From Polyporus tsugae (Eukaryota; Basidiomycota; Agaricomycetes; Polyporales; Polyporaceae), in the NCBI GenBank assembly GCA_024305745.1, contig JAHRBS010000005.1, positions 248,001-312,000 on the forward strand: a stretch of DNA of 64,000 nucleotides, read 5' to 3'. Of this stretch, positions 11,490-49,408 are shown piece by piece. Below the pieces are notes generated by a model. The model saw nothing but the letters and a program-made list of their open reading frames with translations, did no database searches and had not been told where the DNA came from. Each line of letters opens with the position of its first letter. The stretch's first letter is position 1. Made by a program: the position numbers and the translations under genes.

Positions 11490-14189
11490 TTAAGCAAAGT
11501 TCCGCACCCGCTTCGACATCGGCTCCTCGCCATCGTCGAAGCGCCGCTTCGACCCAGTGTGGACCGCCATTGAACCTACAGCCGTGTTCTCCTTCGCGGG
11601 GACGTATCCCTCGCGCGGCTTCTTGTCCTTGCCCTTGTCGCCCTTGGGCCAGGTCGCGTAGGCGATGTACCTGAGGATAAGCTTCTTCATCGGCGCATGC
11701 GTCTTGACCTTGTCGGCGAGTGTGGAATCGATCGCCGCACCGCCTTGCCCGGAAGTTTCCCGGGCAGCCCGGGACGTGGAGGGGTTCTGGGACTCCTCCG
11801 CCTCCATCTCCGCTAAGAGGGCCATAGCGTCCGGGGGAAGGTCCAGGCTCGGCGTCGCGTTCCAGTGATGCTCCTTCACACTCTGCACCAGATACTGTGC
11901 GTAGAGCGCCTGAAACGCCCTGAGGAGCTCGGTGACTAGGGCGTTGATGGGGTGCTCGTTGGCATCGTGACTATCACCGTTGGCCTCAGCCGTCTCGTGG
12001 TTGTCGGAGGGAGTATCGGGATAGGGCGTGAAAAACTCCAGAGGTTTTATCTTCTTACCCTGGCCATCATGGGCGCTGTCGGTGATGAGGGTGAGGTCGA
12101 TGACGCCAGTCTTCATAGCGTAGTACTTGGCGGGGCCGCAGGTGAAGCCGGAGACGCCGTCTGTGTAGTCGTCGAAGTAGTTGTAGAGGAACCGCCCGAC
12201 GGCATTATCGGCGAGGTTGTGGGGGAGGTAGCGGATGGCGTAGTAAATAAGTACGTGGAAAAATGACTCGAGGTCGTCCGCAACCTCGATCAGCTTGGAT
12301 GTGTCGAGTAACGTGAGCGCGGACATGAATTGCCAGGTACCCTGAGCCTTGGGTGTCAGTACAAGGACATGCGGACAGGTAACAGGGAACGTACCGTGCG
12401 ATCGAGCTGTCGTCCGCCGCCTTCAGTAGCGCCGTTGACGAACTTCTTCGACAGCTCCCAATCGTTGAGAAGGCCGACCCATTTATTGTTCTCATCCTTG
12501 TACAGGAGGATGTTTCCCGCACTAATGTCTCGATGAATGTACCCCGCCGCACAAGCCTTCTCATGGGCTGTCAATGGGTATGAGCATGCGACACGATAGA
12601 ACGGTACTTGGCAGCACGTACCCGAGATGCAGCAGAACAAAGCCCAAACGAGTTGGGAGCCAGTCTCGAACTCCGAGAGCGGTTTGCCGACTTCAGCCAC
12701 GACGAGGCGATAGTGTTGATGCGACTTCAGCGGGCATTCTTCTTCGGGCTTGTCCTTGTGTTTGTCAAACCATTCCTCGTACGACCGCGTGCGCTGGTCC
12801 AAGTCGCCGTGATAGAGGACAGTAGGCACGTAGGGAACCTTGGCGTCGTTGAGAGCCTTCAGGATGGTCCCCTCCTTCTCCATCCCTTCGTGGTCGACGC
12901 GCCAGGCGTCTTTGAGGTAGACGAACTTGGCCTTCGGATCCAGCTCGCTGTCATCGTTGAGTGGCGCAGCGACGTAACCACGGGTCCCACGACACGCGAC
13001 GCCACCGGCGTAGAAGTGAGGCTTGCCGACCGCAAACCAACGCTTAACGCCAGACTCCTCGTCGGATACCGACAGCTTCCACCACGGCCACTGCTCGTCG
13101 AGGGTCTCGTTGAAGAGCTTCTGCACGTGGTCCTCGGGGTCCTTCTTGGCGGCGTCAGCCCCGTGCGTCTTCAGCTGCTCCCAAAGAGGATCCGTAGGAG
13201 GGATACGGGAGGCAGTGGGGTCGTGTCCGCGGTTCGTGGGTCCCAGGCGAGCGTAGCGAACAAGGAAAGTCGTGAGTTCGGCACCGCGTTCCGTGTAGTC
13301 GATCTTCTCGGATGCGACGATGCCGGAGCGATCGAAGCGCACAACGCGGGCATAGCGGCCAAGGAAGAGGACCATGAAGACGAACTCGCGTTGCTGGTAC
13401 TTGAACACGAGCTCGACGTACGATAGGATCTGGCCGAACACCTCCCTACGCTTCTCGGCCACCGCTTCGTTGTTCTGGAACCGTTCGTCGAAGGGGTCCT
13501 GGTTGACAGGGTCGAGCTTGCACTCGATGAGGAGCTCGATCAGTGCCCAGACTACGCGCCTCGACTCCTCCTGAGCGTCGGTGTATTCGAATTCCGGCAC
13601 GTTGCCAGAGTCGTACATTCCGCAGTCGATGGTCTGTTTGCTCGGGTCGCTCCGGTCGGACTTGTAGGCAGTGGTGACGAACTCCACTTTGTTGAACTGC
13701 TTAGAATTGTTGAGCACCTTGGTCTGCGTTACGAAGCCTGTCAGGATCTGAAGCAGATAATGAGAGATGGGAATGGTGGCTTACAATGTAGTCGTACATC
13801 TCCCTCTCCAAACCGAACTTGGGGACCGCGGTGAATATGTTGGGGATCGACTTGGAATTCTCGGAGGGGGCAGGCAAGAAGACGTCCACCATTTCATGGA
13901 GCGAGACGATGTACGTCTTGTCACGCATGGTGGATGGCAGTTCGGCGCGGGCGTCCTGTCTGCAGTGGTATACTGAAGCGTTGGGCCCCGACGAGTCGGA
14001 ATTGACGCAAGAGTTCAATGGACGGCCGATAGAACAGCCCCGTGTTGTGCAAGAAGATGTCAGAACCAACGCCAAAGAAGTGCTTAGCTTGGCATAATTC
14101 CGCAGTTGAATCCCAGACGAGAGGACAATGGCGGCCGAGGGGATCTGCTGTCGGATGCGAGTCGAGTTCAACCGTGACCATGGCCGCAA
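11490..14189 (-). CDS. FunK1-type protein kinase (arm 1, outer copy)
   Basis: FunK1 kinases are a fungal-specific, mostly basidiomycete protein-kinase expansion of unknown substrates. Exons: 14189-13785, 13723-12622, 12567-12395, 12341-11490; up to 843 aa. Visible kinase landmarks are the VGKPHFYAGG region before the nucleotide loop, the ATP-lysine region FVYLKDAWR, the catalytic loop YIHRDISAGNIL, and LLNDWELSK, which replaces DFG. All key acidic and lysine residues are present. The loop reads ACRGTRG here, against VGRGTCG in the neighbouring paralogue. The C-terminal tail is lysine-rich (SKRR...SKRVR) and suggests nuclear localisation. The start is uncertain: similarity to the neighbour begins upstream of the ATG at 13928 (shared ARAEL), so translation should begin further right, but the first about 60 codons from 14189 do not look family-like. 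It is head to head with the next FunK1 gene. Confidence 0.8.
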
Positions 14190-14701: not shown

Positions 14702-17299
14702 ATGTCTTACATCTCATCTAACGCACCCAGCTCTCCACCCAAATTCCGCCGAGTCAACGATCCTAACGCGATCCTAGCTCGCACGAAGCAGAGCGCACGA
14801 GCGGAACTGCGATCTATGGCACACAGAAAGGTGTACATTTCCGACATAGACTCCTTCTTCGAGAACTTCTTCCCCCCCAACAAGTCATCTTCGAAGAAGG
14901 CCGTTCCCAACATCTTCGATGGCGCCCCAACCACCTTCCCCTCGGAGAGCAAGATGTACGAGTGGCTCGTAAGTCAGATCTCATTCACTCTCCCACGACT
15001 TCGGCTTCATATTGACTCTCATTTTCAGTGCGATCGGCTGAACAACTCGGGTCAATTCAAAGGGAAGTCTGAGTTCGTCGTGACCGCATACAAACCCGAC
15101 CCCAGCGATCCCACAAAGCAAGCCATCGACTGCGGGATGTACGTCTCTACGTCCACACCACCCGAAGGCTGGACCTCTTTGGGCGAAGAGTCCAGGCGCA
15201 TCATCTGGTCGCTCCTCGAGCTTGGCATCGAATGCAAGCTCCAGACCTCCCTCGACCCATTGGACGAGCGAAGGGACGACGATGAGCCCACTGGTCAAAC
15301 CCGCAAGGACGTGTGGGCCCAGCTGCTATCCTACGCGGACCTCGTCTTCCAGTTCCAGAAACGCCTCTTCCATTACATCGTCATCTTCTTCGGCCGCTAC
15401 GCACGCATCATCCGCTTCGACCGCTCCGGCATCGTCGCCACCGAGAAGATCGACTACACCACCGACGGCGACCGTCTCACCGAGTTCTTCGTCCGCTATG
15501 GTCGGTTTCAGCCAAAGAACCGCGGCCACGACCCCACCGCCACTCGCGTTGATCCCAAGGGCGACTTCGGGGCGGAGATGCGCAAGTATGGACAGGAAGT
15601 TGCGGAGAAGCGTCCGAAGGACCACGTCCCTCCGCTGTTCAACAAGACACTCGACGAGCAGTGGCCGTGGTGGAAGCTCAAGGTGTATGACGAGGTCACG
15701 GACTCACATCATTCCTTCGCCGTCGGGAAGCCCCACTTCTACGCTGGCGGGGTCGTTGGTCGCGGGACATGTGGTTACATCGCTGTCCCGTTAGACGAGA
15801 ATGGCAAGCCCACCCCGCTCCGCATCCCCAAAGACGGCAAGCCCTCCCCACTTAGCGAGGACGACAAGCCCGCGGACGGCGACCAGTCGACGGAGTCAAA
15901 GGACGTGTACTTTGTGTACCTCAAGGACGCTTGGCGTGTGGACCACCCTGGCATCGAGAAGGAGGGCGCCGTTCTGCATGTGCTCAACAAGCACCAGGTG
16001 CACTACGTTCCCACTCTCCTCCACCACGGTGATCTGGGGCAAGACACGCTGTCCTACGCGAAGTGGGTCGCGTACCACGACGACGAGGATCCCAGCGATT
16101 GTCCCTTGAAGGCCCACCAGCATTATCGCCTCGTCGTAGCTGAGGTTGGGAAACCACTCTCGGAATTTAGCAACGGCCGAGAACTCGTCATCGCCATCCT
16201 TTGTTGTATCATCGGTGAGCCTTCGCGTACTACCGTGCTCGCCCCTCTTTCGTACTGACACGCCTGCACAGCTCACAAGGAGGCATGCCAAGCTGGATAC
16301 ATCCACAGGGATATCAGCGCAGGCAACATCCTTCTCTACCCGAACGCTGCTGGTGCGTGGACTGGCTTGCTCAACGACTGGGAGCTCTCCAAGGCGTTCG
16401 AGGATGGGAAGACAAAGGAGGGAAATCGTCAGTTCGACCGGACTGTAAGTGGTGTCCGTATTCTTCCGGTCGTAGGTGTTCTAACAGGCCTCCAGGGAAC
16501 GTGGCAATTCACATCAGTGCATGCCCTCATCGACTATTCGAAACTCATCGCGATACCTGACGATCTCGAGTCCTTCTTCCACGTCTTGCTCTACTTCGCC
16601 ATTCGTTTCCTCCCTCACAACGCTTCCGACGTCGCCCCCGAGCTATTGGCCAGCTACTTCGACGATTACACTAACGGACTGCGGGGTCAAACCTCTGGAT
16701 CTACCAAGTATGCGGCGATGCGCTATGGCGAGATCGATATCACCTGCTTCACCGGAGGCACGACCGACGCTAGTAGCGGCAAACCCCTCGCAGAATACCT
16801 CACATTCCTGTGGCCATCAGCCACAAAAACCGATAGGCAGCACCCGATACAGTTCCTGATCTGCGAACTTCTCAAATGGTTGAAGGCGTTGTACGCGCAG
16901 GACCGCCGAGAGGAGGACGACCACGCAGTCTCCGAGAACGACGCAGTCGGCGACGATGAAGTCCTCGGCGACCCGGAGTTGCTCGAGGCGTTGGAGGGCG
17001 ACGGCAACGCGGCCCTCTTGTCCGCGCCCCAGACGAATCCCGAGGCCGAGAAGCAGACTCTGCGCGAGCTGGCCCGGAACCTCGAGAGCCACGACGCTCT
17101 GGAGACGCTCCTCCGGCAGCTCATCAAGCGCCCTGGATGGCCTGTGCGGGACAAGGGCGTCGACAAGAAGCCTAAGAAGGGGTACAGCCCGCCGAAGGAC
17201 AACATCCCAGCCACTTCGACTAAGATTGGGTCGAAGCGGGTTTTGGAAGACGGAGGAGAGCCTAGCTCGAAGCGTATACGGAGCAAGGCTAGGGCTTGA
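14702..17299 (+). CDS. FunK1-type protein kinase (arm 1, inner copy)
   Basis: Four exons (14702-14968, 15029-16214, 16272-16444, 16496-17299) give 809 aa. The intron positions match the other three FunK1 genes here. Landmarks: glycine loop GVVGRGTCGYIAV near residue 330, ATP-site lysine in YLKDAWR near 384, catalytic loop YIHRDISAGNIL near 496, LNDWELSK (DFG equivalent) near 520 and GTWQF near 542. An insert of about 25 residues rich in P, K and D lies between the glycine loop and the lysine. The C-terminal 100 residues are charged and end SKRIRSKARA. The ATG at 14702 follows a CACC context and a TATA box. Nothing breaks the frame, so this copy should encode an active kinase. Substrate and role are unknown. 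Confidence 0.9.
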
Positions 17300-17794
17300 G
17301 TTCCGCTTTTGTGCGTGGCGTTATACTCTCTTCTGCATCGGTGCCATCGCCTCGGAGAGTCGACCACATCGTCTTGTATCTTGCTTCCAACTGCCACCGC
17401 GTACTGTACATCGTAGCTTTCATAGTAAACTATCCATTCAGATATTCCAGGTATTGCTTGAATGCTCCACTTGCAATTCCGCTAGACGAACCCATATCAG
17501 ACTCCACTAGAATCCATCAACACCTTGCGCCGCCCTCCGAACACTGCATTGCATTGGCACTCCGTACCCATTGCATACGTACACGTTCTTCAAAGATCGT
17601 TCGGTTATATCCAATGACGCGCCTGTACATACACATGTCCACTATCTTCAGGTATACTATTGCAGTGTACGCTTCTATCCAGAGGGGACGGTGAAGTTCA
17701 AGTTCATTGGGGTACGGAAACAGATCGCTATGTAATCGACGATCGTGCATCCTCACTCAGGAGAACTTCTCCACGACAGCGCACGCAGTAGCTT
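17300..17794. other. convergent intergenic region, conserved in both arms
   Basis: About 0.5 kb lies between the 3' ends of FunK1 and DUF4419. No coding content was recognised. It is nearly identical to 43101-43595 in arm 2, which shows that the arm similarity is not limited to exons. Confidence 0.6.
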
Positions 17795-19497
17795 TCACTT
17801 CTTTTCGAATATAAACCACTGCGCCGAGGGGCTGACCGTGTCGATCTCGTCGCTTCCAACCGCAGACGATCCGGAGAAGGCGACGTGCCCCGCGACCATC
17901 ATGCAGTCAAGCCTGTGGCCGTTGTCGTCCACGATCACGTCGACCTCGCAGTATCCGGGCGGGATACCTCCCACGGGAATCACGAAGAACGGGACGCCGT
18001 CGAGCGTGTACGTCGGACTGGCGTAGCCATGCGGACCTGTGCAGGGTATGTCAGCCGATGCGTTAGAAATTCGGCATGAACACAAGCGCGAAACACCAAC
18101 TTTTCACCATAACGCTTCCTTCGGAGGGCTCCGAGTCGCTTGTGCTGCTCGCGCTCTCGATGGCCGCCGCAGCACCGGCGGAGGGGTCCTCCCGCGGCTT
18201 TCGCATCAGCGACTCAGTGGCCGGCACAGCACCGACGGAGGGGTCCTCCCGTGGCTTTCGCATCAGCGATTTCGAATGCCTTCGCAACCACTTCGGTATG
18301 ACCTTGTCCAAGCGTTTCGTCGTAGGTGCGGCCCCAGTACCCGATGCACTTGATGGCGCGCCGGTAGAGAGCGGCGCCGAGACCGGCACGTATTCAGGCT
18401 TGAGCGGGATGGTCTCCGGGAGGCTGTCGCCTTTCCACGCGCCCTTGCTCGACCAAGCGCAGAAGGCCGTGATCCACCCGCTGAGGTCGTCTTGCCCGCA
18501 CATTTCGTCGTATCGGTACATGATGTGGCTCCAGAACGGAACATCGGGCTCCCCGTCGAACGCGGTGATGAACCGGCGGATGATGGGGCGGAGCATCTCC
18601 GCCCAGATCGTGGGCTCCTGGCCCAGGTCGTACAGACGCCAGAGCCGTCGGTAGATCTCCTCCCAGTCGGACCGCTCGCCTTCGAGGGTGACGGACGGGA
18701 TGCCGCAGGTGATGCCGATGAAGTACTCGAAATACCTGCGTTGACAAGTTCAGTGCGCGACAACCGGGATCGTTTGGGAACGGGCGCACTCCTTCAGGGT
18801 TGCCATCATGACGACCGCGCAGACGGTGGTATCCTTCGTGGTAGTCGTGGTGAAGTTGGGAAGGATCCACTCGACCAGCGTATCGTCCACGACCTGTATT
18901 GACCATTGTAAGTAGCAACCTTAATGACGCGACGATGACCGCTGACGCACGTTCTCGTGGATGAGCTTGGTGAAGGTTTTGGCAAGTTTCCCATAGTTGA
19001 CCGTATAACGATCACCGACGGTCTTCACTTTCAATCTCTTCTTCCCTTCGTGCGCAACAAAGAGGGAGCGTAGTTCTTCGGCGTGTGCGTTGATGCTAGC
19101 CCCATGTGAGTGAGTGCATCCATACTTGGGAGAACCTGAGCATCGACGTACTAGAAGTTAAGCTGGATTAGGATCGCCAGCCAGACGTCATCAGGCCTGT
19201 GGGAACACACATTCCGAGTCACTCAGAAATAGCTATGATCGACAAGGAAAAGACGAACCGAATGCGGAGATGGCGGTGAGATCCGTAAGCTTCCAGGACG
19301 GCGTACACGAAACCGTTGCTGTTGGGTACGATTGTGGCGAGGTCGTGTTTCTCGACAGAGCTCTGCAACATCTCCTTGCATTGTCGCGCCTGGACCTCAC
19401 ACCCATGCTTGAGGACGGTCTCTGCGTTCGGAAGGCCGCCCTTCGCAAGGTGTAAAGGGTTTGCTGAGTGAGAGGCGACTTTGAATGTCACTGGCAT
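17795..19497 (-). CDS. DUF4419 domain protein (intact copy)
   Basis: Six exons (19497-19259, 19196-19152, 19095-18951, 18893-18790, 18735-18101, 18036-17795) give 469 aa with exact phase agreement. DUF4419 signatures appear in order: NGFVYAVLEAY, RPDDVWLAILIQLNFY, NAHAEELRSLFVAHEGKK, WILPNFTTTT, VVMMATLKEYFEY, CGIPSVTLEGERSDWE, LSGWITAFCAW and, near the end, IPPGYCEVDV with DDNGHRLDCMMVAG. The 45-nt second exon is required for the RPDDVW block. DUF4419 proteins occur across fungi and some bacteria with no established function; they are predicted soluble proteins. A 19-residue repeat (SLMRKPREDPS...) is duplicated in the variable linker between the two conserved halves. It is convergent with the inner FunK1 gene. 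Confidence 0.88.
18172..18285 (-). repeat. 57-bp tandem duplication inside the DUF4419 linker
   Basis: Two 57-bp units (18172-18228 and 18229-18285) encode two near-identical 19-residue blocks around MRKPREDPS. The arm 2 gene has one unit, and the length difference between the corresponding exons (635 and 578 nt) is exactly 57. The reading frame is preserved. Confidence 0.9.
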
Positions 19498-19859
19498 GAC
19501 GGATACTTGGCGCGTTGGCAGGGGTGGTGGATTTGATGGTCAAGGACAAAGGAGGAGAAGAGGTAGGGAGAGGCCGGGTACGTGACGGACCAGTGTTTGC
19601 TTAAATTTGAGGCCTGAGGAGTCACTGTCAGGATGCAGTAGGACTTTACACTCGTGAGATGCCAGTGATCATCATCATGCCACAATACTATTACAAGTAC
19701 CTTCTAAAGTTCCATATGTCGCACGAACACAGCATTTGAGGTACCACGAGAGGCCTAGCCCAAGCGAGGCAGACTGCGATCCCAGGACTCGGAGATGTGT
19801 CTGGTATTTGAGCTCGGATAGATATTGACCGCAGAACAGTCGAACAGAACTTACGGTAT

Positions 19860-22740
19860 GTATGTCGACGTCCGCGGGTACCTCACCACAGGTACTAGGC
19901 TGTGGGCGGCGCTGGCGGTGGTAGTATAGGTCCTGGTCCGGGGAATCCATGCCGCACACTATGCAAGCTGCGAAGCAGCGCGGGCCTTGGCTTATGAAGG
20001 TTCGCAGCTCCCGCTCGAGCTCATCGACTTCAAGGCTGTCCGGCCTCCCCCATCCTGGCCACTGCCCCCTGCCGCTCACGTTCCCCAGTTCGCAAAGGTC
20101 CACAAGGTACATACACCCCTACACCCAGTCGGGCGCGCTTCGGAGCGTGCAGTACGCATGGGCGTGGTAGACCTTCCCCCACTCACTGACCTGCAGTGGG
20201 ACTGCCCCTTCCCTCTATCGCGCTTGGTGCTCGAGCTCAAACAGCGGAACCTGAGCCAGGTGCTCGCTATTCCCGCGCGGGGAAACCTCTGGCCTGTGCT
20301 CCGCTCATTCCTCGGCCCAAAGCCTCGACCAGCCTATGTTGATGCTGCCGCCCTTCAAGAAACCTTCGAGGTACGGATGAACCCGCCGCGCACCCTCCCC
20401 GCAGAATTCAACCCCCTGCGTCATGCCCTCAACCGCATCACGGCACAGTCGCTGCCCCGGCGGACACTAGACACGACCGAAGGGCAGTACTTCTCGAAGC
20501 CCTTCACGGTCGCTGAAGTGGACGCGGTCAAAGCCCATATCCGTGCGCACTGCAAAGGCTCGGCCACTGGACTTGACGGCCTCGACTACTCCGCTGTGCT
20601 TGATATCCCGTCGGACTGCCTCCGCGACCTCTTTCAGCACTGCATCGACGACTCCACTGTCCCACAGGCTTGGCTCACGGCGATTATCGCCGCGGTCAAG
20701 AAGCCCAAGAAAGACCCGAAGGTCCCGGCTAGCTACCGTACCATTGGCCTCGAGAGCTGTCTACTCAAGACCCTCACGCTCCTCATCGACCGCCGGCTAC
20801 GAGAGTGGGCGGAAGTGACGGGCCGCATACCGGATAGCCAAAGTGGATTTCGGTCAGGACACCGGACAATAAACAACGCGTTTGTCCTGCGCTCCCTCGT
20901 CGACAAGGCACAGTCTCTCAAACGCCCCTTGTATGTCGTCTTCCTGGACCTCACCAACGCCTTTCCCTCCGTGGACCAGCCGACGCTATGGCTCAAGCTG
21001 TTGCAGTGGGGTGCGTCTGGCCCTCTTGTCGACTGGCTCCGAATGCTGTACTCCAGCCTTCGCTATGTCGTCCGTCACAACAATGAACATTCCGATGTGT
21101 TCACGGCGGCTGCCGGGATCCTGACGGGGGACCCCGCATCTCCTGTCCTCTGGCTGTTGTTCATCTCCGACTTCCGGCTGGAGCCTCACCCCGACGACAT
21201 CGACCTAGCGGGCACGCCTGTCTCCAACATGGAGCTAGCAGATGACATGACACTAGTCAGCTTGTCGCCGGCGGGGGCCCAAGACAAGCTGAACCAGTTC
21301 TCGGAGTACACAGCTAACACGTTTGTGCTCACGAACATTCCCAAAACGCTGGCCCTTGTCTTTGGCCTCCTCCCCGACCCCCTCCCTGTGCTTCTCCTGC
21401 GTGGCGGTCCCGTCGCACTCATCGACTCTGCAAGATATACCGGAGTCCATTTCTCGACAACGCATGGTGACATATTCGCTCCCCACTACGTGCACAAAGA
21501 GCAGGCAGCCCGCAACGCTGCGAATGCGGCCTTGTCTATCGAATCCCACATCGGTTCGATACCGGCGGCGACAGCTCGCGCCTTATACTTTGCCCACGTG
21601 GAGCCACACCTGACGTTTGGGTGCGAGGTCGCTATTGATGTCCGCAACAACTGCCTCAAACCCTTCGAGGACCTACAGCGCACGTACCTCCGCCGCCTCC
21701 TTGGTGCCAGCCCCCACTCGCAGATTGTCCCTCTCTACACGGAGACTGGTGTCTGGCCCGTACGATACCGCCGCATGGAGCTCATCCTCCGCTACACAAA
21801 GTACATCATCCGCAATGGTCCTCTCTTCCCCAGGCTGGCTCTACAAGAGGCTGTGAACAGCGCCCGCGAACAGCGCGCGTCTTGGTGGGGTGACGTCCTG
21901 CATGCTTTGGCTGCGCTCCCCGTGCCTGTACAGATGCAGGACTGGCAAGCGGGCCCAACTGCTGCGTCACTCGACAGGGCTACTCGGGACCTAACAAGCT
22001 CCCTCGCTCAACACCTGCGACATGGTGTCATGGCGTCTTCCCGCCTGCCCCTGCTTCAGGCCCGCTTTGGCCCCCTGGCGAATGGCGTGCGACTGAACCG
22101 GCTAGCCGCTTGGCGGCCCTACCTAGACGTACAGCGCGCCCCACACCGCAGTGCTCTCACGCGCCTCTTGATCTCCGAACACCCGCTCGCCGTAGAAGTC
22201 CTGCGACACTCACCCCACACGGTCCCTCGCCACTGGAGGATCTGCCGCCTGTGCGAGCACCGGGAGTGCATCGAGGACGAATGCCATGCTCTGTTCCTCT
22301 GCGAGCATGCAGCCCTGGTCCGGATACGCGAAGATTTTTTCTCGGCCTTGCGTGCACAGTTCGGAATAGGCCTCGCCTATTTGCTGGCCTTCTCTCCGCT
22401 GACCCCAGACAATATACTCGTGGTCCTGTTAGAGAGGGGCGATGTACTGCCGCTACTAGCGGAATACGTAGATGCTGTGTTCCACACTGTACAACTGCTG
22501 CCATTGCGGATAGTACGCTCTGAGGACGAATGGGGGGCGCTGGCGTCGCAGTAAATGATATATTGATTATTGACCGTGATATGAGTTCCCTCTTGGGGAA
22601 GCTGCAGGATTTCCGGAACGTGTTCGCGGACATCTGGCCGAGTGCGCGAACTGGTTTTTTAAGCGGTACCCCGGGCAGGCGCCTGCGGCTTGCCGAATAT
22701 TATCTCTCTCTCTCTCTAAGGCCCCAGGGTCACGGTACGG
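19860..22740 (+). mobile_element. LINE (non-LTR) retrotransposon, 5'-truncated
   Basis: The element is defined by the RT frame plus an untranslated tail to about 22740, where sequence shared with the coproporphyrinogen oxidase gene begins soon after. No LTRs flank it. I could not identify a poly-A tail or a target-site duplication by eye; a short CT run lies at about 22705-22718. The limits are approximate. Confidence 0.55.
19930..22554 (+). CDS. LINE-type reverse transcriptase (non-LTR retrotransposon ORF)
   Basis: One uninterrupted frame of about 870 codons. The reverse-transcriptase blocks run in order: KPKKDPKVPASYRTI with SCLLKTLTLLIDRRL, SQSGFRSGHRT, motif A FLDLTNAFPSVDQ with its aspartate, motif B GILTGDPASP, and motif C LADD where most LINEs have YADD or FADD. 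The C terminus has a zinc-knuckle-like CRLCEHRECIEDECHALFLC. No endonuclease or RNase H domain is visible. There is no ATG before 20158; the frame is open from the TAG at 19927-19929, so the element is probably 5' truncated, as LINE copies usually are. The RT body itself is intact, with all catalytic aspartates. It sits right at the inner edge of inverted-repeat arm 1. Confidence 0.85.
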   Translation, partial: VLVRGIHAAHYASCEAARALAYEGSQLPLELIDFKAVRPPPSWPLPPAAHVPQFAKVHKVHTPLHPVGRASERAVRMGVVDLPPLTDLQWDCPFPLSRLVLELKQRNLSQVLAIPARGNLWPVLRSFLGPKPRPAYVDAAALQETFEVRMNPPRTLPAEFNPLRHALNRITAQSLPRRTLDTTEGQYFSKPFTVAEVDAVKAHIRAHCKGSATGLDGLDYSAVLDIPSDCLRDLFQHCIDDSTVPQAWLTAIIAAVKKPKKDPKVPASYRTIGLESCLLKTLTLLIDRRLREWAEVTGRIPDSQSGFRSGHRTINNAFVLRSLVDKAQSLKRPLYVVFLDLTNAFPSVDQPTLWLKLLQWGASGPLVDWLRMLYSSLRYVVRHNNEHSDVFTAAAGILTGDPASPVLWLLFISDFRLEPHPDDIDLAGTPVSNMELADDMTLVSLSPAGAQDKLNQFSEYTANTFVLTNIPKTLALVFGLLPDPLPVLLLRGGPVALIDSARYTGVHFSTTHGDIFAPHYVHKEQAARNAANAALSIESHIGSIPAATARALYFAHVEPHLTFGCEVAIDVRNNCLKPFEDLQRTYLRRLLGASPHSQIVPLYTETGVWPVRYRRMELILRYTKYIIRNGPLFPRLALQEAVNSAREQRASWWGDVLHALAALPVPVQMQDWQAGPTAASLDRATRDLTSSLAQHLRHGVMASSRLPLLQARFGPLANGVRLNRLAAWRPYLDVQRAPHRSALTRLLISEHPLAVEVLRHSPHTVPRHWRICRLCEHRECIEDECHALFLCEHAALVRIREDFFSALRAQFGIGLAYLLAFSPLTPDNILVVLLERGDVLPLLAEYVDAVFHTVQLLPLRIVRSEDEWGALASQ

Positions 22741-22772
22741 TCGAGCGTCTAGCCACTGTGGGTCTGTCCACA

Positions 22773-23078
22773 GAGTCCAGTTCTACACCGCATTCACCTT
22801 CCCCAACATCCACCCCATGGCCGCCGCCTCGGACGTACCTATGCGTCAGCGTGTCGAGGGGTACGTCTCCAAGCTCCAGGAAGACATCGTCCGCGCCTTC
22901 GAGAAGCTCGACCCCAACGCCCCGTCCTTCAAGCGCGACTCCTGCCAGTGGCTCCGCGCCCAAGGCCGTGAAGTCCCATGCGTGTTCGCGGTGCCCGCAC
23001 CCGCGCCTGGAGTGGAGGCCGCACCCCAGGAGACAGTGCTGGAGAAGGCTGGGGTGAATATCTCCATCGTCCACGGTA
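22773..23078 (+). pseudogene. truncated 5' copy of the coproporphyrinogen III oxidase gene
   Basis: From the leader (agagtccagtt) through the ATG at 22817 to about 23078 the sequence copies the start of the HEM13 gene at 25331: about 85 codons, ending at the conserved AGVNISIVHG. Beyond that point it turns into unrelated sequence. The open frame runs on to 23284 but has no further similarity. The copy lacks the whole substrate-binding and catalytic core, so it cannot be an active enzyme. Small differences from the complete gene (DSCQWLRAQGRE against DSWLRAQGGRG) show that it has drifted. Confidence 0.85.
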
Positions 23079-23341
23079 CTTATGCGGGGGACGATACCGT
23101 CCTGGCGCGAGGCTGCTCGCGGCGTTCGAATCCGCTTCGCACTGCTCGGCGAGAATCTCCCGCTCACGTTGGCTCGTTGTCTACACACCTCAACACTTTC
23201 TGCAGGCAATGGCTGCCAGTTTCATCATGTCTCGAAATCAGCTGTAACTCATATGTGAAAATGACCCTTCATAATACTATGTAGTGCGTGGGGAAGTGAA
23301 GAAGACGCCTGGAAAGCTCCGATGAGTGTCGTTGCGCCGAG

Positions 23342-24228: not shown

Positions 24229-24421
24229 GGGCGGGGAGTTTTGGGGGTTGCTGGTGTTATACCCGTTTGTAGTGGCGTAGCCCCTGGGATAGATTTTGGA
24301 TCAGCCAAGCGAGTGATAGGGGAGGAGTGCTCCCAGGGTGGCGTCACGGTCATGCAATCAACACGTAGGGGTAAATGTTCGCGCAGGGGTACAGGATACA
24401 GGTGTTGCGCACCTGAGGGGG

Positions 24422-35746: not shown

Positions 35747-36112
35747 CAGTGTATCGTGATTCCGGATATGATATCAAGGGTGTAGTATATACAGTTAGGA
35801 GGCATTGTAGAGTACATGTGCACGCGTTGTGCAAAGGTTTATATGGACAGTATGGACCGCAGACACCCCGCCCAATCGCCCCGTCCCCGTGTCTGCATTG
35901 GTAACAACCCCTTGATCCTGTCCCCATAGTATGCATCGTTGAGACGCCAGTGTGATGCCAGTGCGATGAATGACGAATGATAGTACGTGGAATATGAGCC
36001 GGGGTGAGGCTTGATGAAGACACTGCAAGAACAAAGTTTGGAACCGGAGACATAGCAGGAGGACAGTTGTTTGGCCCCTCCTACGTCTTCGGCTGTCTCG
36101 GAACAAGACGCG
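35747..36112. other. convergent intergenic region
   Basis: This holds the 3' ends of the PTAR1-like and SWIB genes. An open frame continues leftwards from the SWIB gene to 35839, but it depends on not splicing the last intron and shows no family similarity. Confidence 0.6.
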
Positions 36113-37062: not shown

Positions 37063-38594
37063 TATGTACAGTACGCGTTACAGACGGCGAGACACGACGA
37101 CGAGGGAACGGAAGACGGTGTCGCGGACGAGAGGGATGCTCGGGCTGGGAGCAGAGTTGCCTCCTCCGCGCCAGTCGTTGGTGTTCCCGGCAGACGCCCA
37201 CACGTGACCCTCCCACCGCGCCTCACGTGCTCCCGCCACCTTCCCAAAATGGAGTGCATCGGACGCTTCAGCCCCTGCCGTGAATTCGCCTGGCCTGGCC
37301 TGGCCCGCTCTCCCCTCGCATGTCTCCTCCTCACCGTTGCATGCAGACCCTCGGCGTTCTCTCGGTGAGTGCTCTCGTGTTCTGTTCGACCGACTCGGTC
37401 TCCCGGATTTGCGAGCTGGGTGGCGGTGTGATTGTAGATCCAAGCGGTGCAATCACAATCACACCCACATCCTCTACTGAGACAAATCCCACCCTTTTTT
37501 GTCCCAGTCCTTGCGTCTTCCCGCGCCCTTCCCCTCGCTCTCCTCTGCTTCGCACTGGGCACAACAATGCCGGCGCGCGTCGGAGGTGCGTTGTGAGTGA
37601 GCGTTCTCGAGCCCCTCTTCTTCGTAGAACATCATTTGGCGGTTCTCCCGCCTTCTGAGAACGTGGGCCACGTTCTGCGTCGTACCTTGGCCATAACCTC
37701 CCCCTGCTTCTGGCCTTATTATCCTCTGCCTCGAAACCTGCCGCGCAACCTTCCTGTCAACTGATATTACGACTCTCTTGGGCAGCGGTGAACCCATAAT
37801 GCAATTCCGAGACACCTTGGACGGGAGCGCATCCTGTTTGCTTGTAATTCTCGAACCGCGCTCGTCGCAGAACACCCACTCCGGCACCACATCCGAAGAC
37901 ACCTTGCTGCAAACGTATTTTTTGGTTTTCATGGCTGTGCGCCGATCCCAGTTTATCCAGTGGCCAGTACGACTCAGCTGCTATGTTGTGATTGTTGTCA
38001 GTCCTCCGCGACTCCGGTGCACGTCATCTCCCCATCCTTTCATCCCCACAAGCAACATACGTTTGTCGCATGTAGGCACACGAGTGAGCCACACGGCGCA
38101 GCTCTGCCGCATTCCCGCACGATGGATGCCCGTCATCGCTGAGACGGTTCGAACACGTTCCAGTCCATATGATACCCATAGGCGCAGTGCTTACCATCGT
38201 AGGCCAACGGCTAAGGCTTCCTTTTGCATCGCGCTGATTGGATGGTGCAGGGGGATGTCTTCTTGACTTCCTTTGATGCCCACCGCATTACGTCCACTTC
38301 ATATCCCTGTCCTTCTGAGGCTAGGTCTGAGCTGTCCCAGTAGTTCTAGCCTGCCCCCCGTGCTCTCACTGACGTTAGACGTTTTATCTCACTCCCAACT
38401 AGAAATGCCGGAGTCTGGGTCGTTGGCAGGTGAAAACCCAGCTATGAAATAAGCGGGACATTCTGTTACGTGACCCACGGCGCAGCCAATATAGTGAATC
38501 ATCACAGCGATTTTTTATTTTTTGCCCCCGCCCTCCACCATCGTCTGTCCGAGCGTACTGACACTTCCGACCCGCAGAGCGTGCACTGCGCACC
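37063..38594. other. divergent intergenic region, no gene seen
   Basis: About 1.5 kb between the divergent SWIB and F-box genes. It has several open frames under 170 codons (37474-37932, 37778-38266), none with a family motif or convincing splicing. It is presumably a promoter for both sides; a small unrecognised gene cannot be excluded. Confidence 0.4.
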
Positions 38595-41040
38595 ATGCCC
38601 ACACTAGAAACCCTCCCCGCAGAGCTCGTCCTGCGCATCGTCGCCTACCTCCCGCTCCAAGCGCTCCGCAACCTCCGGCTCGTTTCGCGAAGCTGGCACG
38701 CCTTCTTCTGCGAGCATGAATCCACCATCTACCATCATGCGGCGCTTCTCCACAACTTTATCGACTCGATCCACACCCTCCTTCCAGAAGCCAAGGCGGC
38801 GCACCCGCTCAAGTTCCTCCAGGGTGTGCCGGACTGGCGTGAATATTGTGCGCTGTCTTCTCGCTGCTGTTACGTACGCTACCTCGCGGATATTGACGCC
38901 CGCCTGCCCGACGCAGGCCGCATGTACTTCCAGCTCCAGCGAAATTGGTTTGGTGCAGGGTCCGCGACGGCAAAATTCTACGGTAGCCATCCTTACGATG
39001 TGCACCGGCTCAAGGTAGACGAGGAACACGGAATACTAATCACGACGCACGAGTTTGGCGGCCTGACGGTCTTCGACCTCGACACTGCAGAAATCCTATG
39101 GAGACTGGACTCGGTGCGCTCGTTTTCCTTCCCCGCGCTCGCGCCCGTGTCGCAGATCATCCCTCTAACGCCGGGTCGTGGACAGACGTACGTGCGCCGG
39201 TACGCGCACTGCGAATACGAACACGGCTTCCTCGTCTTCGACCGCGTCGGCGCCTCCAAAGAAGTATGGCGCCTCTCCACGCTCTTCGATGAGTTCGAAA
39301 CCCCGCGCTTCTTCCGCCCCAATGGCGCGCAGCTCGACGCCTCGACGGCCGCGTCGAGCGAGTACGCCGCCACGAGCCCGCGGGGCCACTTCCGCCCCTG
39401 GGCACTGATCGAGACCGCCGAGTTCGGGCGCGCGTTCCGGTTCGTCTACCCGACGCTCCTCGTGTCGGGTCTGCGCAAGGCGTACCTGTGGAACGTCGTC
39501 AGCGCGACGCTCGAGCTCGAGCTCGATAACGTGCAGGGTAACGCGGGGGGCGGCGACATCAATTACGTCGAGCTGAGCCAGGCCCATGTGTTCGTGTGCT
39601 CGACCTCGGCGTTGCGCATCTTCTCGAGGGCGGAGGGCGGGCGGATGATCTATGAGATCCGGTCCTACCAGCTTGTGTACTCGGACATCAGGATGGCGGT
39701 GCAGCTCGACCCGGCGCTCGCCCGGCAGAAGGTAGCGGGCCCGAGTGAGGGGATTGTGCTCCCTGCGGAGCCGACGATGTCGACGGCGCTGTACACGGCG
39801 TCGTACGCGGAGTTCTCAGCAGGTGCGCGCGTCTCATTGCGGGATACTTGACTTGAGCATACCTATTCTCCGTAGTGCACGTGTCGCGCGACGGGAAGGA
39901 CCTCGCCGCCCAGCTGAGCGATAGCCGACAGGTCGTCATCCGCGACTTCATGCGCGTCGTGCGCGGCGAGATCTCGCTCAGGACGGCGGCGCTGGAGAAC
40001 GGGAAGACGATCCCCCGGCTTGGCGGCACTGACGAGCACTTCTCGATCTACCTCGCTTTTGAGTTCGCTCGCCTCGGTATCGTCACTGTAAGTCATACAC
40101 ATCTCCTTCCCTTGTCTCCCGCTCTGCGCACACCCTCACACACGCGTGCGCACTTCCTCTTACCCGCAGACGTCCGGCATCTACATCGCGACGCTCGACC
40201 CGACGCACCACGGCCTGGTCGACGAGGACCTGATCCTGACGGGCCGCAAGCGCATGCACGGCATCCCCCAGTCCGCGATCGACGCGGGGCTCTCGTTCCC
40301 GTACCTGACCTTCGTGTCCATGCCGTTCTACCACGACCGTCGGCAGCTCGCGAAGGTGACGTGCCTCCAGATGACGGAGTCGAAGCTCTTCTTCGTGTGG
40401 GACGCGATGTACAAGCCTGAGCACATCGACTTCTTCCGCCGGCTCGGCATGATCCCCGGGAACACCCCGCCGCCGCACGGCCCGGACGACGACGGCGACG
40501 GCGACGGCGACGATGGCGGCGGGGCTGACGACGGTGGGGCTGGGGCTGGAGCTGGGGCCGGGGAGCAAGAGACGCAGGTGGTCCTTGCGTCGGGGAGCGG
40601 GGTGCAGATCGAGGATCTGTTGGATGAGACGGAGACTCTCGGGGCTGGCCCGTCGGCCGAGACTGTACATGGGGAAATCCCCATCGACATCATCGACCTC
40701 CTCGAACAAGGCGAGGGCGAGGGTGCGGAAGAGCCTGAGACGGGAGTAGAAGGGGAGGCAGAGGCTGGCGAGGAGAACGCAGGGGAAGAGGACTCGGACG
40801 ACAATAGCACTGATGACAGCAACGGCTCTAGCGACGACAACAACGACAACGACAACGACAACGACTGGAACGTTCCCCCGCATGGCGGGAACCACCCTCT
40901 GGACGATATTGGACGAGATCGTGAGTTGCCGTCCCCGTTGTTCCTGTGTCGTTTCTCGCCGGTGCTGAAGCTTGTGTGCAGATGACCTTGTTCCGACGGG
41001 CCCTATTGTTTTCTGCATCGACTTCAGCCCGCAGGTTTAG
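38595..41040 (+). CDS. F-box protein with a long uncharacterised C-terminal region
   Basis: Four exons (38595-39822, 39876-40087, 40170-40920, 40982-41040) give 749 aa. Residues 3-45 are an F-box (LETLPAELVLRIVAYLPLQ, LRLVSRSWHAFF), which binds SKP1 and places the protein in an SCF ubiquitin ligase. The following about 450 residues contain beta-strand-rich blocks (GILITTHEFGGLTVFDLDT, RKAYLWNVVSATLELEL, ALRIFSRAEGG) that look like a propeller, though no WD motif is clean. The last about 200 residues are acidic, with long D/G, E and N/D runs from simple repeats. A final 19-codon exon adds a short conserved-looking tail (VPTGPIVFCIDF). The stop lies only about 80 bp from the edge of inverted-repeat arm 2. 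Confidence 0.8.
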
Positions 41041-41446
41041 TTTCGACTCTGCGGTTCTGAAATGTTTATCACGAATAGGTGTATACATCCATAGCATTCA
41101 TGTTTCCCTTTCACCCGCTTCATGGGTTCTGCAGTCACGAAGGGGCACTCGTATCCTCAAATACCAGACACATCCCCGAGTCCTGGGATCGCACTGGTCT
41201 GCCTCACCTTCATGCGAAGCACAGTTGCATTTGGGGCAAGGCTCGTGCTGTACGAGAAATGCTGCCAGTGTTTGTGCGACATAGTAGTACTTGCACTGCA
41301 TGAGTCTCTCACGCGTACTACCAGTGCATCCTGACAGTAACTCCTCAAGTAAACACTGGTTTGTCGCATACTCGGCCTCTCCCTCCCTCTCCTTGTCCTT
41401 TGTCCTTGACCGTCAACCACCCCTGCCAACGCGCCAACTATCTGTC

Positions 41447-43595: not shown

Positions 43596-46199
43596 TTAAG
43601 CCCTAGCCTTGCTCCGTATACGCTTCGAGCTGGGCTCTCCTCCGTCTTCCAAAACCCGCTTCGACCCAATCTTAGTCGAAGTGGCTGGGATGTTGTCCTT
43701 CGGCGGGCTGTACCCCTTCTTAGGCTTCTTGTCGACGCCCTTGTCCCGCACAGGCCATCCCGGGCGCTTGATGAGCTGCCGCAGGAGCGTCTCCATAGCA
43801 TCGTGGCTCTCGAATTTCCGAGCCAACTCGCGCAGGCTCTGCTTCTCTGCCTCGGGATTCGTCTGGGGCGCGGCAAAGAGGGCGGCGTCGTCTTCGTCGC
43901 CGTCGCCCTCCAACCCCTCGAGCAACTCCTGATCGCCGAGGACCTCATCGTCGCCGACTGCGTCGTTCTCGGAGACTGCGTGGTCGTCCTCCTCTCGGCG
44001 GTCCTGCGCGTATAACGCCTTGAACCATTTGAGAAGTTCGCAGATCAAGAACTGTACCGGGTGTTGCCTATCGGTTTCTGTCGCTGATGGCCACAGAAAT
44101 TTGAGGTATTCTGCGAGGGGTTTGCCGTTGGCGTCGGTCGTGCCGCCGGTGAAGCAGGTGATATCGATCTCGCCATAGCGCATCGCCGCGTACTTGGTGG
44201 ATCCAGAGGTTTGACCCCGCAATCCGTTGGTATAGTCGTCGAAGTAGCTGGCCAATAGCTCGGGGGCGACGTCGGTACCGTTGTGAGGGAGGAAACGAAT
44301 AGCAAAGTAGAGCAAGACGTGGAAGAAGGACTCGAGATCGTCAGGTATCGCGATGAGTTTCGAATAGTCGATGAGGGCATGCACTGATGTGAATTGCCAC
44401 GTTCCCTGGAGGCCTGTTAGAACACCTACGACCGGAAGAATACGGACACCACTTACAGTCGGGTCGAACTGACGATTTCCCTCCTTTGTCTTCCCATCCT
44501 CGAACGCCTTGGAGAGCTCCCAGTCGTTGAGTAAGCCGCCCCATGAACCAGCAGCGTTCGGGTAAAGAAGGATATTGCCTGCGCTGATATCCCTGTGGAT
44601 GTAACCCGCTTGGCAGGCCTCCTTGTGAGCTGCGTATGTAAGTCAGTATGAATGACGGATGAGGTCAATAGGACGTGGAAGCTGACCGACGACGCAACAG
44701 AGGATAGCGGTGACGAGCTCTCGGCCATTGGTAAATTCCGAGAGCGGTTTCCCAACCTCAGCTACGACGAGGCGGTAGTGTTGGTGCGCCTTCAAGGGGC
44801 AGTCGCGAGGGTCTTCGTCGCCGTGGTACACAGCCCAGTTGGCGTAGGACTGCGTGTCTTGTCCTAGATCGCCGTGGTACAGGAGAGTGGGAACAAAGTG
44901 CACTTTGTGCTTGTTGAGCACATGGAGAACGGCGCCCTCCTTCTCGATACCAGGGTGGTCCACGCGCCAAGCGTCCTTGAGGTACACGAAGTACACGTCC
45001 TTTGACTCCGTCGACTGATCGCCGTCCGCAGGCTTGTCGTCCTCGCCGAGTGGGGAGGGCTTGCCGTCTTTGGGGATGCGGAGCGGGGTGGGCTTGCCGT
45101 TCTCGTCTAGCGGGACAGCGATGTAACCACATGTCCCGCGACCAACGACCCCGCCAGCGTAGAAGTGGGGCTTCCCGACGGCGAAGGAATGATGCGAGTC
45201 CGTGACCTCGTCATACACCTTGAGCTTCCACCACGGCCACTGCTCGTCGAGCGTCTTGTTGAACAGCGGAGGGACGTGGTCCTTGGGACGCTTCTCCGCA
45301 ACCTCCTGTCCATACTTGCGCATCTCCGCCCCGAAGTCGCCCTTGGGATCGACGCGAGTGGCGGTGGGGTCGTGGCCGCGGTTCTTTGGCTGAAACCGAC
45401 CATAGCGGACGAAGAACTCGGTGAGACGGTCGCCGTCGGTGGTGTAGTCGATCTTCTCGGTGGCGACGATGCCGGAGCGGTCGAAGCGGATGATGCGTGC
45501 GTAGCGGCCGAAGAAGATGACGATGTAATGGAAGAGGCGTTTCTGGAACTGGAAGACGAGGTCCGCGTAGGATAGCAGCTGCGCCCACACGTCCTTGCGG
45601 GTTTGACCAGTGGGCTCATCGTCGTCCTTTCGCTCGTCCAATGGGTCGAGGGAGGCCTGGAGCTTGCATTCGATGCCAAGCTCGAGGAGCGACCAGATGA
45701 TGCGCCTGGACTCTTCGCCCAAGGAGGTCCAGCCTTCGGGTGGTGTGGACGTAGAGACGTACATCCCGCAGTCGATGGCTTGCTTTGTCGGATCGCTGGG
45801 GTCGGGTTTGTATGCGGTCACGACGAACTCAGACTTCCCTTTGAATTGACCCGAGTTGTTCAGCCGATCGCACTGAAAATGAGAGTCAATATGAAGCCGA
45901 AGTCGCGGGAGAGTGAATGAGATATGACTTACGAGCCACTCGTACATCTTGCTCTCCGAGGGGAAGGTGGTTGGGGCGCCATCGAAGATGTTGGGAACGG
46001 CCTTCTTCGAAGTTGACTTGTTGGGGGGGAAGAAGTTCTCGAAGAAGGAGTCTATGTCGGAAATGTACACCTTTCTGTGTGCCATGGATCGCAGTTCCGC
46101 TCGTGCGCCCTGCTTCGTGCGAGCTAGGATCGCGTTAGGATCGTTGACTCGGCGGAATTTGGGTGGAGAGCTGGGTGCGTTAGATGAGATGTAAGACAT
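43596..46199 (-). CDS. FunK1-type protein kinase (arm 2, inner copy)
   Basis: Four exons (46199-45933, 45872-44687, 44629-44457, 44405-43596) give 811 aa. It is nearly identical to the arm 1 inner copy through the first two exons, with the same glycine loop GVVGRGTCGYIAV, YLKDAWR, YIHRDISAGNIL and LLNDWELSK. The sequence differs mildly around the third intron and in the acidic linker of the last exon, where this copy has a few extra residues (GDGDEDDAALFAAPQ), which explains the two-residue length difference. All catalytic residues are kept and no lesion is visible, so both inner FunK1 copies should be functional. The promoter region and its TATA box are shared in sequence with arm 1. Confidence 0.9.
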
Positions 46200-46732: not shown

Positions 46733-49408
46733 TTGCGGCCATGGTTGAACTCGACTCGCATCCGACAGCAGATCCCCTCGGCCGCCATTGTCCTCTCGTC
46801 TGGGATTCAACTGCGGAATTATGCCAAGCTAAGCAGTTCTTCGGCGTTGGTTCTGACATCTTCTTGCACAACACGGGGCTGTTCTATCCGTCCATTGAAC
46901 TCTTGCGTCAATTCCGACTCGTCGGGGCCCAACGCTTCAGTATACCACTGCAGACAGGACGCCCGCGCCGAACTGCCATCCACCATGCGCGACAAGACGT
47001 ACATCGTCCCGCTCCAGGAAATGGTGGACGTCTTCTTGCCTGCCCCTTCCGAGAATTCCAAGACGATCCCCAACATATTCACCGCGGTCCCCAAGTTCGG
47101 TTTGGAGAGGGACATGTACGACTACATTGTAAGCCACCATTCCCATCTCTCATTATCTGCTTCAGAATCTGACATGCTTCGTAACGCAGACCAAGGTGCT
47201 CAACAATTCTAAGCAGTTCAACAAAGTGGAGTTCGTCACCACTGCCTACAAGTCCGACCGGAGCGACCCGAGCAAACAGACCATCGACTGCGGAATGTAC
47301 GACTCTGGCAACGTGCCGGAATCCGAATACACCGACGCTCAGGAGGAGTCGAGGCGCATGGTCTGGGCACTGATCGAGCTCCTCATCGAGTGCAAGCTCG
47401 ACCCTGTCAACCAGGACCCCTTCGACGAACGGTTCCAGAACAACGAAGCGGTGGCCGAGAAGCGTAGGGAGGTGCTTGGCTAGATCCTATCGTACGTCGA
47501 GCTCGCGTTCAAGTACCAGCAACGCGAGTTCGTCTTCATGGTCCTCTTCCTTGGCCGCTATGCCCGCGTTGTGCGCTTCGATCGCTCCGGCATCGTCGCA
47601 TCCGAGAAGATCGACTACACGGAACGCGGTGCCGAACTCACGACTTTCCTTGTTCGCTACGCTCGTCTCGGACCCACGAACCGCGGACACGACCCCACTG
47701 CTTCCCGTATCCCTCCTACGGACCCTCTCTGGGAGCAGCTGAAGACGCACGGGGCTGACGCCGCCAAGAAGGACTCCGAGGACCACGTGCAGAAGCTCTT
47801 CAACGAGACCCTCGACGAGCAGTGGCCGTGGTGGAAGCTCTCGGTGCCCGACGAGGAGTCTGGCGTTAAGCGTTGGTTTGCGGTCGGCAAGCCTCACTTC
47901 TACGCCGGTGGCATCGCGTGTCGTGGGACCCGTGGTTACGTCGCTGCGCCACTCAACGATGACGGCGAGCTGGATCCGAAGGCCAAGTTCGTCTACCTCA
48001 AAGACGCCTGGCGCGTCGACCACGAAGGGATGGAAAAGGAGGGGACCATCCTGAAGGCTCTCAACGACGCCAAGGTTCCCTACGTGCCTACTCTGCTTTA
48101 TCACGGCGACTTGGACCAGCGCACGCGGTCGTACGAGGAGTGGTTTGACAAGCATGAGGGCAAGCTGCCAGAAGGATGCCCGCTGAAGTCGCACCAACAC
48201 TATCGCCTCGTCGTGGCTGAAGTCGGCAAATCACTTTCGGAGTTCGAGAATGGGGCCCAGCTCGTCTGGGCATTGTGCAGCTGTATCATCGGTATGCCCT
48301 GTCGTGTGTCACTCCATTGTTTCGCTTACTCATACACGTCGATAGCTCACGAAAAGGCTTGCGTTGCAGGCTACATTCATGGAGATATTAGTGCTGGAAA
48401 CATCCTCCTGTACAAAGATGAGAACAACGAGTGGGGCGGCCTTCTCAACGATTGGGAGCTGTCCAAGCAGTTCGCACAGGGGGAGACTCAAAGCGGTGGG
48501 CGACAACTCGAACGAACGGTGTGTTCTCCCCCAATCGCCCGCACTGGCATGACCTTGTGCTGATTTCCCATGTTCAGGGTACCTGGCAATTCATGTCCGT
48601 GCATACGCTGCTCAAGAGCACTGGAATGATCGAGATCTCGGACGACCTTGAGTCACTCTTCCACGTCCTCATCTACTACGCCGTTCGGTTCCTTCCCCAG
48701 AACCTCGCTGATAACGCCGTCGGGCGGTTCCTCTACAAGTACTTCGACGACTACACAGACGGTGCCCATGGCTTCAGCTGCGGTTTTGCGAAGTACAATG
48801 CTATCAAGCGGGGCGTCATTGACCTCACGCCCATCATTGGTATCGCTGATGGTGGCGAGGGTCAGAACTTGACGCGGTCCCTCGTGTTCTTCCTGCAGCA
48901 CTGTGACACCCCCTCCGACGAGAAGGGCGGGAGCCTCGCCCGGAGGGGCGGCCACCCCATCAACAACCTCGTCGCCGAACTCCTCAAAGCTTTCCAGGCG
49001 CTCTATGCCCAGGATGGGACGAAGATACTGGACACCCAAGTACCGAAGGAGGGCTGTACCCCCGCAAAGGCCATGATGGCTCTCCTAGCGGAGATGGAGG
49101 CCGAGGAGTCTCAAAATGCCTCCACGTCCGCTGCCTGGGCAACCTCGGCGCAAGGCGGTGCGGCGATCGATTCCACCCTCGCCGACAAGGTCAGGACCCA
49201 CGCGCCGATGAAGAAGCTTCTCCTCAGACACCTCGCCTACGCAACGTGGCCCAAGGACGACAAGGGCGAGGACAAGAAGCCGCACGAGGGACACGTCCCC
49301 GCGAAGGAGGACACCGCTGTAGGTTCAACGGCGATCCGAACTGGGTCCAAGCGGCCCCACGACGAGGACGAGGGCTCGGTATCCAAGCGGGTGCGGATCT
49401 ATGCTTGA
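46733..49408 (+). pseudogene. FunK1-type kinase (arm 2, outer copy) with an in-frame stop
   Basis: Exons correspond one-to-one with the arm 1 outer copy: about 46733-47128, 47190-48291, 48346-48518, 48578-49408, with equal second and third exon lengths. At 47481-47483 the codon is TAG (after REVLG) where the arm 1 copy reads CAG, cutting the protein before the kinase domain. Apart from this the frame is open to 49408. The catalytic loop reads YIHGDISAGN here, with glycine replacing the HRD arginine, and DWELSK is kept. The first 300 codons are nearly identical to arm 1, but from about 48150 onward similarity falls sharply (the last exon is only moderately similar). Restart at a later ATG (for example 47538) could give a shortened kinase-containing product. 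The start codon is uncertain, as in the sister gene. Confidence 0.7.

What the first reader, a model, noticed from the sequence alone, without database searches (positions are those of the whole stretch)
11490..49408. Inverted repeat with a near-identical core and diverged edges: signature of arm-to-arm gene conversion
Two arms (about 11.5-19.85 kb and 41.1-49.4 kb) carry FunK1, FunK1 and DUF4419 genes in mirror order around an about 21-kb spacer. The central about 6.7 kb is almost base-identical, introns and intergenic DNA included. On both sides homology continues but drops clearly: outer FunK1 genes after about 12750/48150, DUF4419 promoters outside about 19440/41510. A single recent duplication would give uniform identity. 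High identity inside older homology suggests conversion, as in palindromes of sex chromosomes, and the arms could also invert the spacer, which carries HEM13, HRD3 and other housekeeping genes.
Basis: partly seen in the sequence, partly recalled or inferred. Interest (0 to 1): 0.8.

Follow-up and report, generated by a model that had tools for sequence, protein, structure and literature searches.

The report
FunK1 inverted repeat homogenised by conversion
In a Ganoderma mushroom genome, two old mirror-image copies of a kinase gene block have partly copied over each other in more recent time, so that their middles are nearly the same while their ends and one small inner patch still show the old divergence.

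Summary
Confirmed and extended. The arms (about 11.5-19.9 and 41.1-49.4 kb) form an inverted repeat, FunK1-FunK1-DUF4419, around a 21-kb spacer. Identity is blockwise: 97.5% at 12771-15993, 82% in an inner island (15994-16373), 99.5%, 92%, then 98.7% at 17137-19355; outer edge 54-85%. Silent sites show two main ages: arm-to-arm dS is about 0.06 in most of the core and 0.57-0.75 in edge and island, with an intermediate stretch (0.16-0.24); introns are 95-100% or 64-65% identical. Phylogeny switches with the blocks: in the outer FunK1 edge the left copy is 94% identical to a G. leucocontextum protein but 70% to its right-arm partner; in the core the arms group together (AU p 0.0015 and 0.0004 against the wrong trees). 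This is interlocus gene conversion after the species split, probably in two or more tracts. "Almost base-identical" is too strong (96.7% over 12778-19440); spacer inversion was not testable. Four further inverted FunK1 pairs of this genome also show uneven identity, two of them clearly. The right arm carries a nonsense codon and a 7-nt insertion. The process is known; the case is new to the searches made.

The parts
11487..12770 (-). Left outer edge: unconverted 3' part of outer FunK1 (54-85% to right arm)
   Evidence: Segmentation; dS 0.60-0.75 for aa 361-760; groups with G. leucocontextum P0023
12771..15993 (.). Converted tract 1, left arm: 5' part of outer FunK1, intergenic DNA, most of inner FunK1 (97.5%)
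15994..16373 (.). Unconverted island in inner FunK1, left arm (82%; dS 0.57 for aa 351-445; intron 64.9%)
   Evidence: L=P0001 at 9 sites against L=R at 1
16374..19355 (.). Converted tract(s) 2, left arm: 99.5%, then 92.4% (16594-17136, intermediate), then 98.7%
19356..19890 (.). Left inner edge: DUF4419 5' end and promoter, identity falls to 90% and then about 54%
11493..13928 (-). Left outer FunK1 (exons 13785-13928, 12622-13723, 12395-12567, 11493-12341), open
   Evidence: spliced alignment to P0023; PF17667
14816..17296 (+). Left inner FunK1 (exons 14816-14968, 15029-16214, 16272-16444, 16496-17296), open; start taken from P0001, an in-frame ATG at 14702 would give a longer start
   Evidence: PF17667
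17798..19497 (-). Left DUF4419 gene
   Evidence: tblastn of P0166; PF14388
41447..43097 (+). Right DUF4419 gene; a 7-nt insertion shifts the frame after the first ATG, and no ATG was found in the homologous frame between a TGA at 41454 and 41700
43599..46085 (-). Right inner FunK1 (exons 45933-46085, 44687-45872, 44457-44629, 43599-44405), open
46985..49405 (+). Right outer FunK1 (exons 46985-47128, 47190-48291, 48346-48518, 48578-49405), one in-frame TAG at 47481-47483
44528..44907 (.). Right-arm partner of the unconverted island (approximate)
   Evidence: mapped alignment
48143..49411 (.). Right-arm partner of the outer edge (approximate)
   Evidence: mapped alignment
19890..41126 (.). Spacer with HEM13 (PF01218, 25331-26392), Sel1-repeat gene (32559-33947), PPTA, SWIB, F-box and ankyrin genes; 31000-36000 has one match in the assembly, itself

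Best explanation
An old inverted duplication of a FunK1-FunK1-DUF4419 block has been partly rewritten by interlocus (arm-to-arm) gene conversion in this Ganoderma lineage. Shown: blocks of different silent-site age and a matching switch in gene-tree topology. Inferred: two or more conversion tracts (about 3.2 kb and up to about 3 kb) flank a 380-bp unconverted island; the donor was the other arm (or that arm's allele in the partner nucleus); the exchange used ordinary homologous repair, without any special enzyme. Products are hybrid outer FunK1 genes with a shared 5' part and private 3' parts. The direction of copying is not determined.
For: dS jumps tenfold at the breakpoints (0.058 against 0.60-0.75 in outer FunK1; 0.062 against 0.567 in the inner island). 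Intron 1 of outer and introns 1 and 3 of inner FunK1 are 95-100% identical; introns 2 and 3 of outer and intron 2 of inner, in edge and island, 64-65%. Site patterns against P0023: aa 1-360 L=R 26, L=P 3; aa 361-756 L=R 6, L=P 93 (Fisher 3e-18). Inner FunK1 against P0001: aa 1-350 12 and 1; island 1 and 9 (Fisher 1e-4). Trees: the core rejects (L,P0023), AU 0.0015; the edge rejects (L,R), AU 0.0004. Only two close copies of the core in the assembly by three probes. Other inverted FunK1 pairs of the same genome have uneven identity too.
Against: No reads, strains or sister nuclei were available, so the assembly was not checked independently. The outgroup is protein only, so its silent sites could not be used. 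The 16594-17136 block (92%) and inner aa 446-705 (dS 0.16-0.24) fit neither age and need an older or patchy event; over inner aa 446-771 the site patterns are mixed (L=R 13, L=P 18). In the outer core the right copy is closer to G. leucocontextum than the left (R=P 9 sites, L=P 3), which a simple two-copy model does not explain by itself. The right edge has no clean orthologue in the proteins found (best 78.1%). The G. leucocontextum assembly is 60.34 Mb in 843 scaffolds (passages of PMC8955403), so some of its paralogues could be alleles.
Confidence: 0.9

Rival explanations
1. One recent inverted duplication, with edges that diverged fast by selection or local mutation.
For: Outer edge dN/dS (0.39 in aa 473-760) is higher than in the inner gene (0.13 overall).
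Against: Silent sites and introns diverge strongly in edge and island; the left edge is 93.7% identical to a protein of another species but 69.8% to the right edge, so the split is older than the species.
Confidence: 0.03
2. Both arms were overwritten by a third FunK1-DUF4419 donor (now lost, or in the partner nucleus), and not by each other.
For: FunK1 is a large family here (142 exon-level matches, 139, lower bounds), and paralogue pairs with an abrupt change of identity also occur in G. leucocontextum.
Against: No third close copy in the assembly by the probes run (nearest relative of the outer FunK1 genes among the stretches compared 76-77% in DNA); two independent overwritings are less simple.
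Confidence: 0.1
3. Assembly artefact: two haplotypes of one arm placed in mirror order.
For: Core divergence of 1-3% could be allelic (recalled range, not tested); reads were not seen.
Against: A 5-kb probe of the spacer has a single match, so this part is not assembled twice; an edge at 70% protein identity is no likely allele; G. adspersum locus tags give a mirror-like order of the same families; several such pairs exist in the genome.
Confidence: 0.03

Closest known systems
Ectopic gene conversion between nearby paralogue groups in Aspergillus flavus/oryzae (PMC12844118; abstract and passages seen)
   Same: Fungal paralogues of one chromosome region that group by species; sharp drop of identity beside converted parts; stop codons in converted genes
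   Different: Other gene families and phylum; the words inverted and opposite do not occur in its main text; here an inner island and the edges keep the old age
Human Y palindromes, e.g. P6 (PMC3723533; abstract and passages seen)
   Same: Inverted repeat with arm-to-arm conversion, tracts of several kb
   Different: Identity over 99.9% there; 92-99.5% in blocks here, with a spacer of housekeeping genes; linkage to mating type was not tested
Inverted paralogue pairs of Caenorhabditis (PMC1803023; abstract and discussion section read)
   Same: Paralogous genes in inverted order kept alike
   Different: There arms of 2.2 kb with a 126-bp spacer at the locus quoted, and selection on structure is proposed; here a 21-kb spacer, and a structural role was not looked for
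Mammalian gene pairs under long-lasting conversion, e.g. BMP8A/B, inverted, about 235 kb apart (PMC2720389; passages seen)
   Same: Blocks of over 97% identity inside older duplicates; one of the three pairs is inverted
   Different: The other two pairs are direct; no pattern over one gene family

Membership tests
Interlocus gene conversion / concerted evolution | Paralogues more alike than orthologues in the tract | tested here: met
   L-R 96.4% against L-P0023 90.0% in outer core aa 1-360
Interlocus gene conversion / concerted evolution | Outside the tract, orthologues group together (duplication older than species) | tested here: met
   L-P0023 93.7% against L-R 69.8%; AU 0.0004. Met for the left arm; the right edge has no clean orthologue (best 78.1%)
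Interlocus gene conversion / concerted evolution | Breakpoints visible at silent sites | tested here: met
   dS 0.06 against 0.57-0.75; introns 95-100% against 64-65%
Interlocus gene conversion / concerted evolution | Non-reciprocal transfer with known direction | not testable with these tools
   needs population or outgroup DNA
Sex-chromosome-type palindrome | Arms over 99.9% identical through continuing conversion | tested here: not met
   96.7% over 12778-19440
Sex-chromosome-type palindrome | Spacer inversion polymorphism | not testable with these tools
   no reads or strains
Sex-chromosome-type palindrome | Location on a sex or mating-type chromosome | not tested
   no search for mating-type genes was made
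FunK1 (PF17667) | Pkinase_fungal profile over its cut-off | tested here: met
   left inner 62.6 and left outer 100.2 bits against 24.1; right-arm genes not scanned
DUF4419 (PF14388) | Profile over its cut-off | tested here: met
   left arm 53.9 bits against 25; right-arm gene not scanned

The most novel reading that the evidence does not exclude
FunK1 kinases of Ganoderma evolve as a recombining pool: close copies persist mainly as inverted pairs 7-50 kb apart, because repeated exchange between direct copies would delete the housekeeping genes between them while exchange between inverted copies only converts or inverts; conversion then keeps making hybrid kinases with a shared front and private back part. 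All 6 FunK1 pairs of 90% or more DNA identity over 800 bp or more and within 50 kb that I found are inverted (5, 1). But the window pair prompted the study, two others were fetched because of their opposite strands, and one direct match (92% over 993 bp, 143 kb apart) exists: without the three, 3 of 4 are inverted, p = 0.31. My probability is lowered from 0.3 to 0.25 after this recount.
Probability: 0.25. Interest if true: 0.65.

Novelty: new member of a known kind. Interest (0 to 1): 0.45.

Why it matters
It gives a clean case, with inner and outer controls, of kilobase-scale conversion between inverted gene blocks in a mushroom, in a large kinase family of unknown role whose copies in Paracoccidioides have been read as lineage-specific duplications (PMC3203195, passages). 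If conversion is common in FunK1, counts and dates of FunK1 expansions from gene trees will be biased towards recent, species-specific duplication. The several inverted pairs make a testable system for why inverted duplicates survive.

Tried and rejected
Single recent duplication and fast edges: rejected by silent sites and the edge tree. GC-biased conversion: third-position GC is 80.6% in the outer core against 74.5-76.5% in the edge, and in the inner gene 80-82% in aa 1-350 against 71-74% in the island and aa 446-705, but the high-identity end of inner FunK1 has only 74-76%, so no claim. A fixed conversion boundary shared by species: not supported; single breakpoints of seven other paralogue pairs lie at aa 401-590 against 371 here, and constraint on the N-terminal part may add to the pattern in those protein-only pairs. 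An over-strict constraint tree was replaced by minimal constraints; both gave the same preference. Orientation bias: not significant; still counted the window pair (4 of 5, p 0.19). Literature: no paper holds FunK1 with gene conversion, Ganoderma with FunK1 or interlocus gene conversion with Basidiomycota. Ganoderma with gene conversion: 27 papers, 15 listed and judged by title and abstract start only. Inverted-repeat and concerted-evolution searches: 20 of 224, 15 of 40, 10 of 31 and 2 of 2 listed. These searches cover only the held library.
Full report
What it is. The window is G000:C5:248001-312000 of a 43.24-Mb genome in 18 contigs; C5 has 2,132,190 bases. The nearest named proteins are of Ganoderma leucocontextum (91% for inner FunK1), so the genome is most likely a Ganoderma; the species is not established.

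Observation. The arms align in inverted order. A maximum-likelihood segmentation of 8050 aligned columns gives nine blocks: outer edge 11487-12770 at 85, 54 and 78%; 12771-15993 at 97.5%; island 15994-16373 at 82.4%; 16374-16593 at 99.5%; 16594-17136 at 92.4%; 17137-19355 at 98.7%; 19356-19643 at 90.4%; beyond that about 54% (19644-19890).

Genes. Spliced alignment to G. leucocontextum proteins gives four-exon models for all four FunK1 genes. Left outer, left inner and right inner are open. The right outer gene has one in-frame TAG at 47481-47483. The right DUF4419 has a 7-nt insertion after the first ATG; the homologous frame meets a TGA upstream at 41454 and has no ATG up to 41700. These may be real decay of the right arm or assembly errors; no reads were available.

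Two ages at silent sites. Nei-Gojobori dS between arms: outer FunK1 aa 1-360 0.058, aa 361-416 0.603, 417-472 0.747, 473-760 0.597. Inner FunK1 aa 1-350 0.062, 351-445 0.567, 446-560 0.162, 561-705 0.236, 706-end 0.066. Introns follow: 95.1, 96.7 and 100% in the core, 64.2, 64.8 and 64.9% in edge and island. The island and the edge thus have about the same old age, most of the rest is about ten times younger, and one stretch (inner aa 446-705) lies between.

Phylogenetic test. Against P0023 (G. leucocontextum), sites where L=R differ from P number 26, and L=P differing from R 3, in aa 1-360; in aa 361-756 the numbers are 6 and 93 (Fisher 3e-18). Sites with R=P differing from L number 9 in aa 1-360 and 8 in the rest. 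For inner FunK1 against P0001 the numbers L=R and L=P are 12 and 1 in aa 1-350, 1 and 9 in the island, 13 and 18 in the remainder. With 11 sequences the core tree rejects (L,P0023), AU 0.0015, and the edge tree rejects (L,R), AU 0.0004. The right edge has no clean orthologue (best 78.1% to P0022 and P0025).

Elsewhere. Four more inverted FunK1 pairs of this genome have uneven identity in 200-column windows: C5:209/246 kb (core 89-98%, flanks 78-84%, an inner patch of 70%), C17:405/437 kb (97-100% beside 64-92%), C5:350/367 kb (89-98% beside 79-92%), C11:264/320 kb (92-100% beside 72-93%). The first two are clear, the last two weaker; silent sites were not separated in these four. In proteins, G. 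leucocontextum P0022-P0025 and G. sinense P0015/P0016 also have alike front parts and diverged back parts (93-96 against 66-77%; 96.4 against 66.6%), but constraint and alleles are not excluded there.

Orientation. Among FunK1 pairs of 90% or more identity over 800 bp or more within 50 kb, 6 of 6 are inverted. One direct match of 92% over 993 bp lies 143 kb away. Leaving out the window pair, which prompted the study, and the two pairs fetched because of opposite strands, 3 of 4 are inverted, p = 0.31. Only a part of the FunK1 loci was compared: 243,864 bases in 23 stretches, plus four probes of the whole assembly, of which two found no relative above 74% over more than 100 bases.

Mechanism. 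Nothing here needs a new enzyme. The known cases nearest to it are named in Closest known systems.

Verdict. A well-supported new case of a known process, of moderate interest, with a possible family-wide pattern worth a proper count.

Noticed in passing
24419-24891 and 22772-23078: Relic of a third DUF4419 5' end and promoter (minus strand) next to HEM13, and a 93% copy of the HEM13 5' end at 22772-23078: looks like a partial duplication of the DUF4419-HEM13 junction. The right-arm promoter (41126-41559) resembles the relic (88%) more than the left promoter does the right.
   Followed up: partly
20178-22717: Retroelement with a reverse transcriptase frame (RVT_1) and CT-rich 3' end, 99.76% identical to a copy on C15 at about 2.996 Mb: a recent insertion between the left arm and the HEM13 fragment.
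   Followed up: partly
28553-28721: Short FunK1 relic inside the spacer, 82-84% in DNA to the outer FunK1 edges.
   Followed up: no
47481-47483 and 41447-41463: The two probable lesions seen in the block are both in the right arm (nonsense codon in outer FunK1, 7-nt insertion in DUF4419).
   Followed up: partly
P0002 against P0001 (G. leucocontextum): By eye, P0002 differs from P0001 in about the first 260 residues, is almost the same in the middle and differs again later: perhaps another mosaic FunK1.
   Followed up: no
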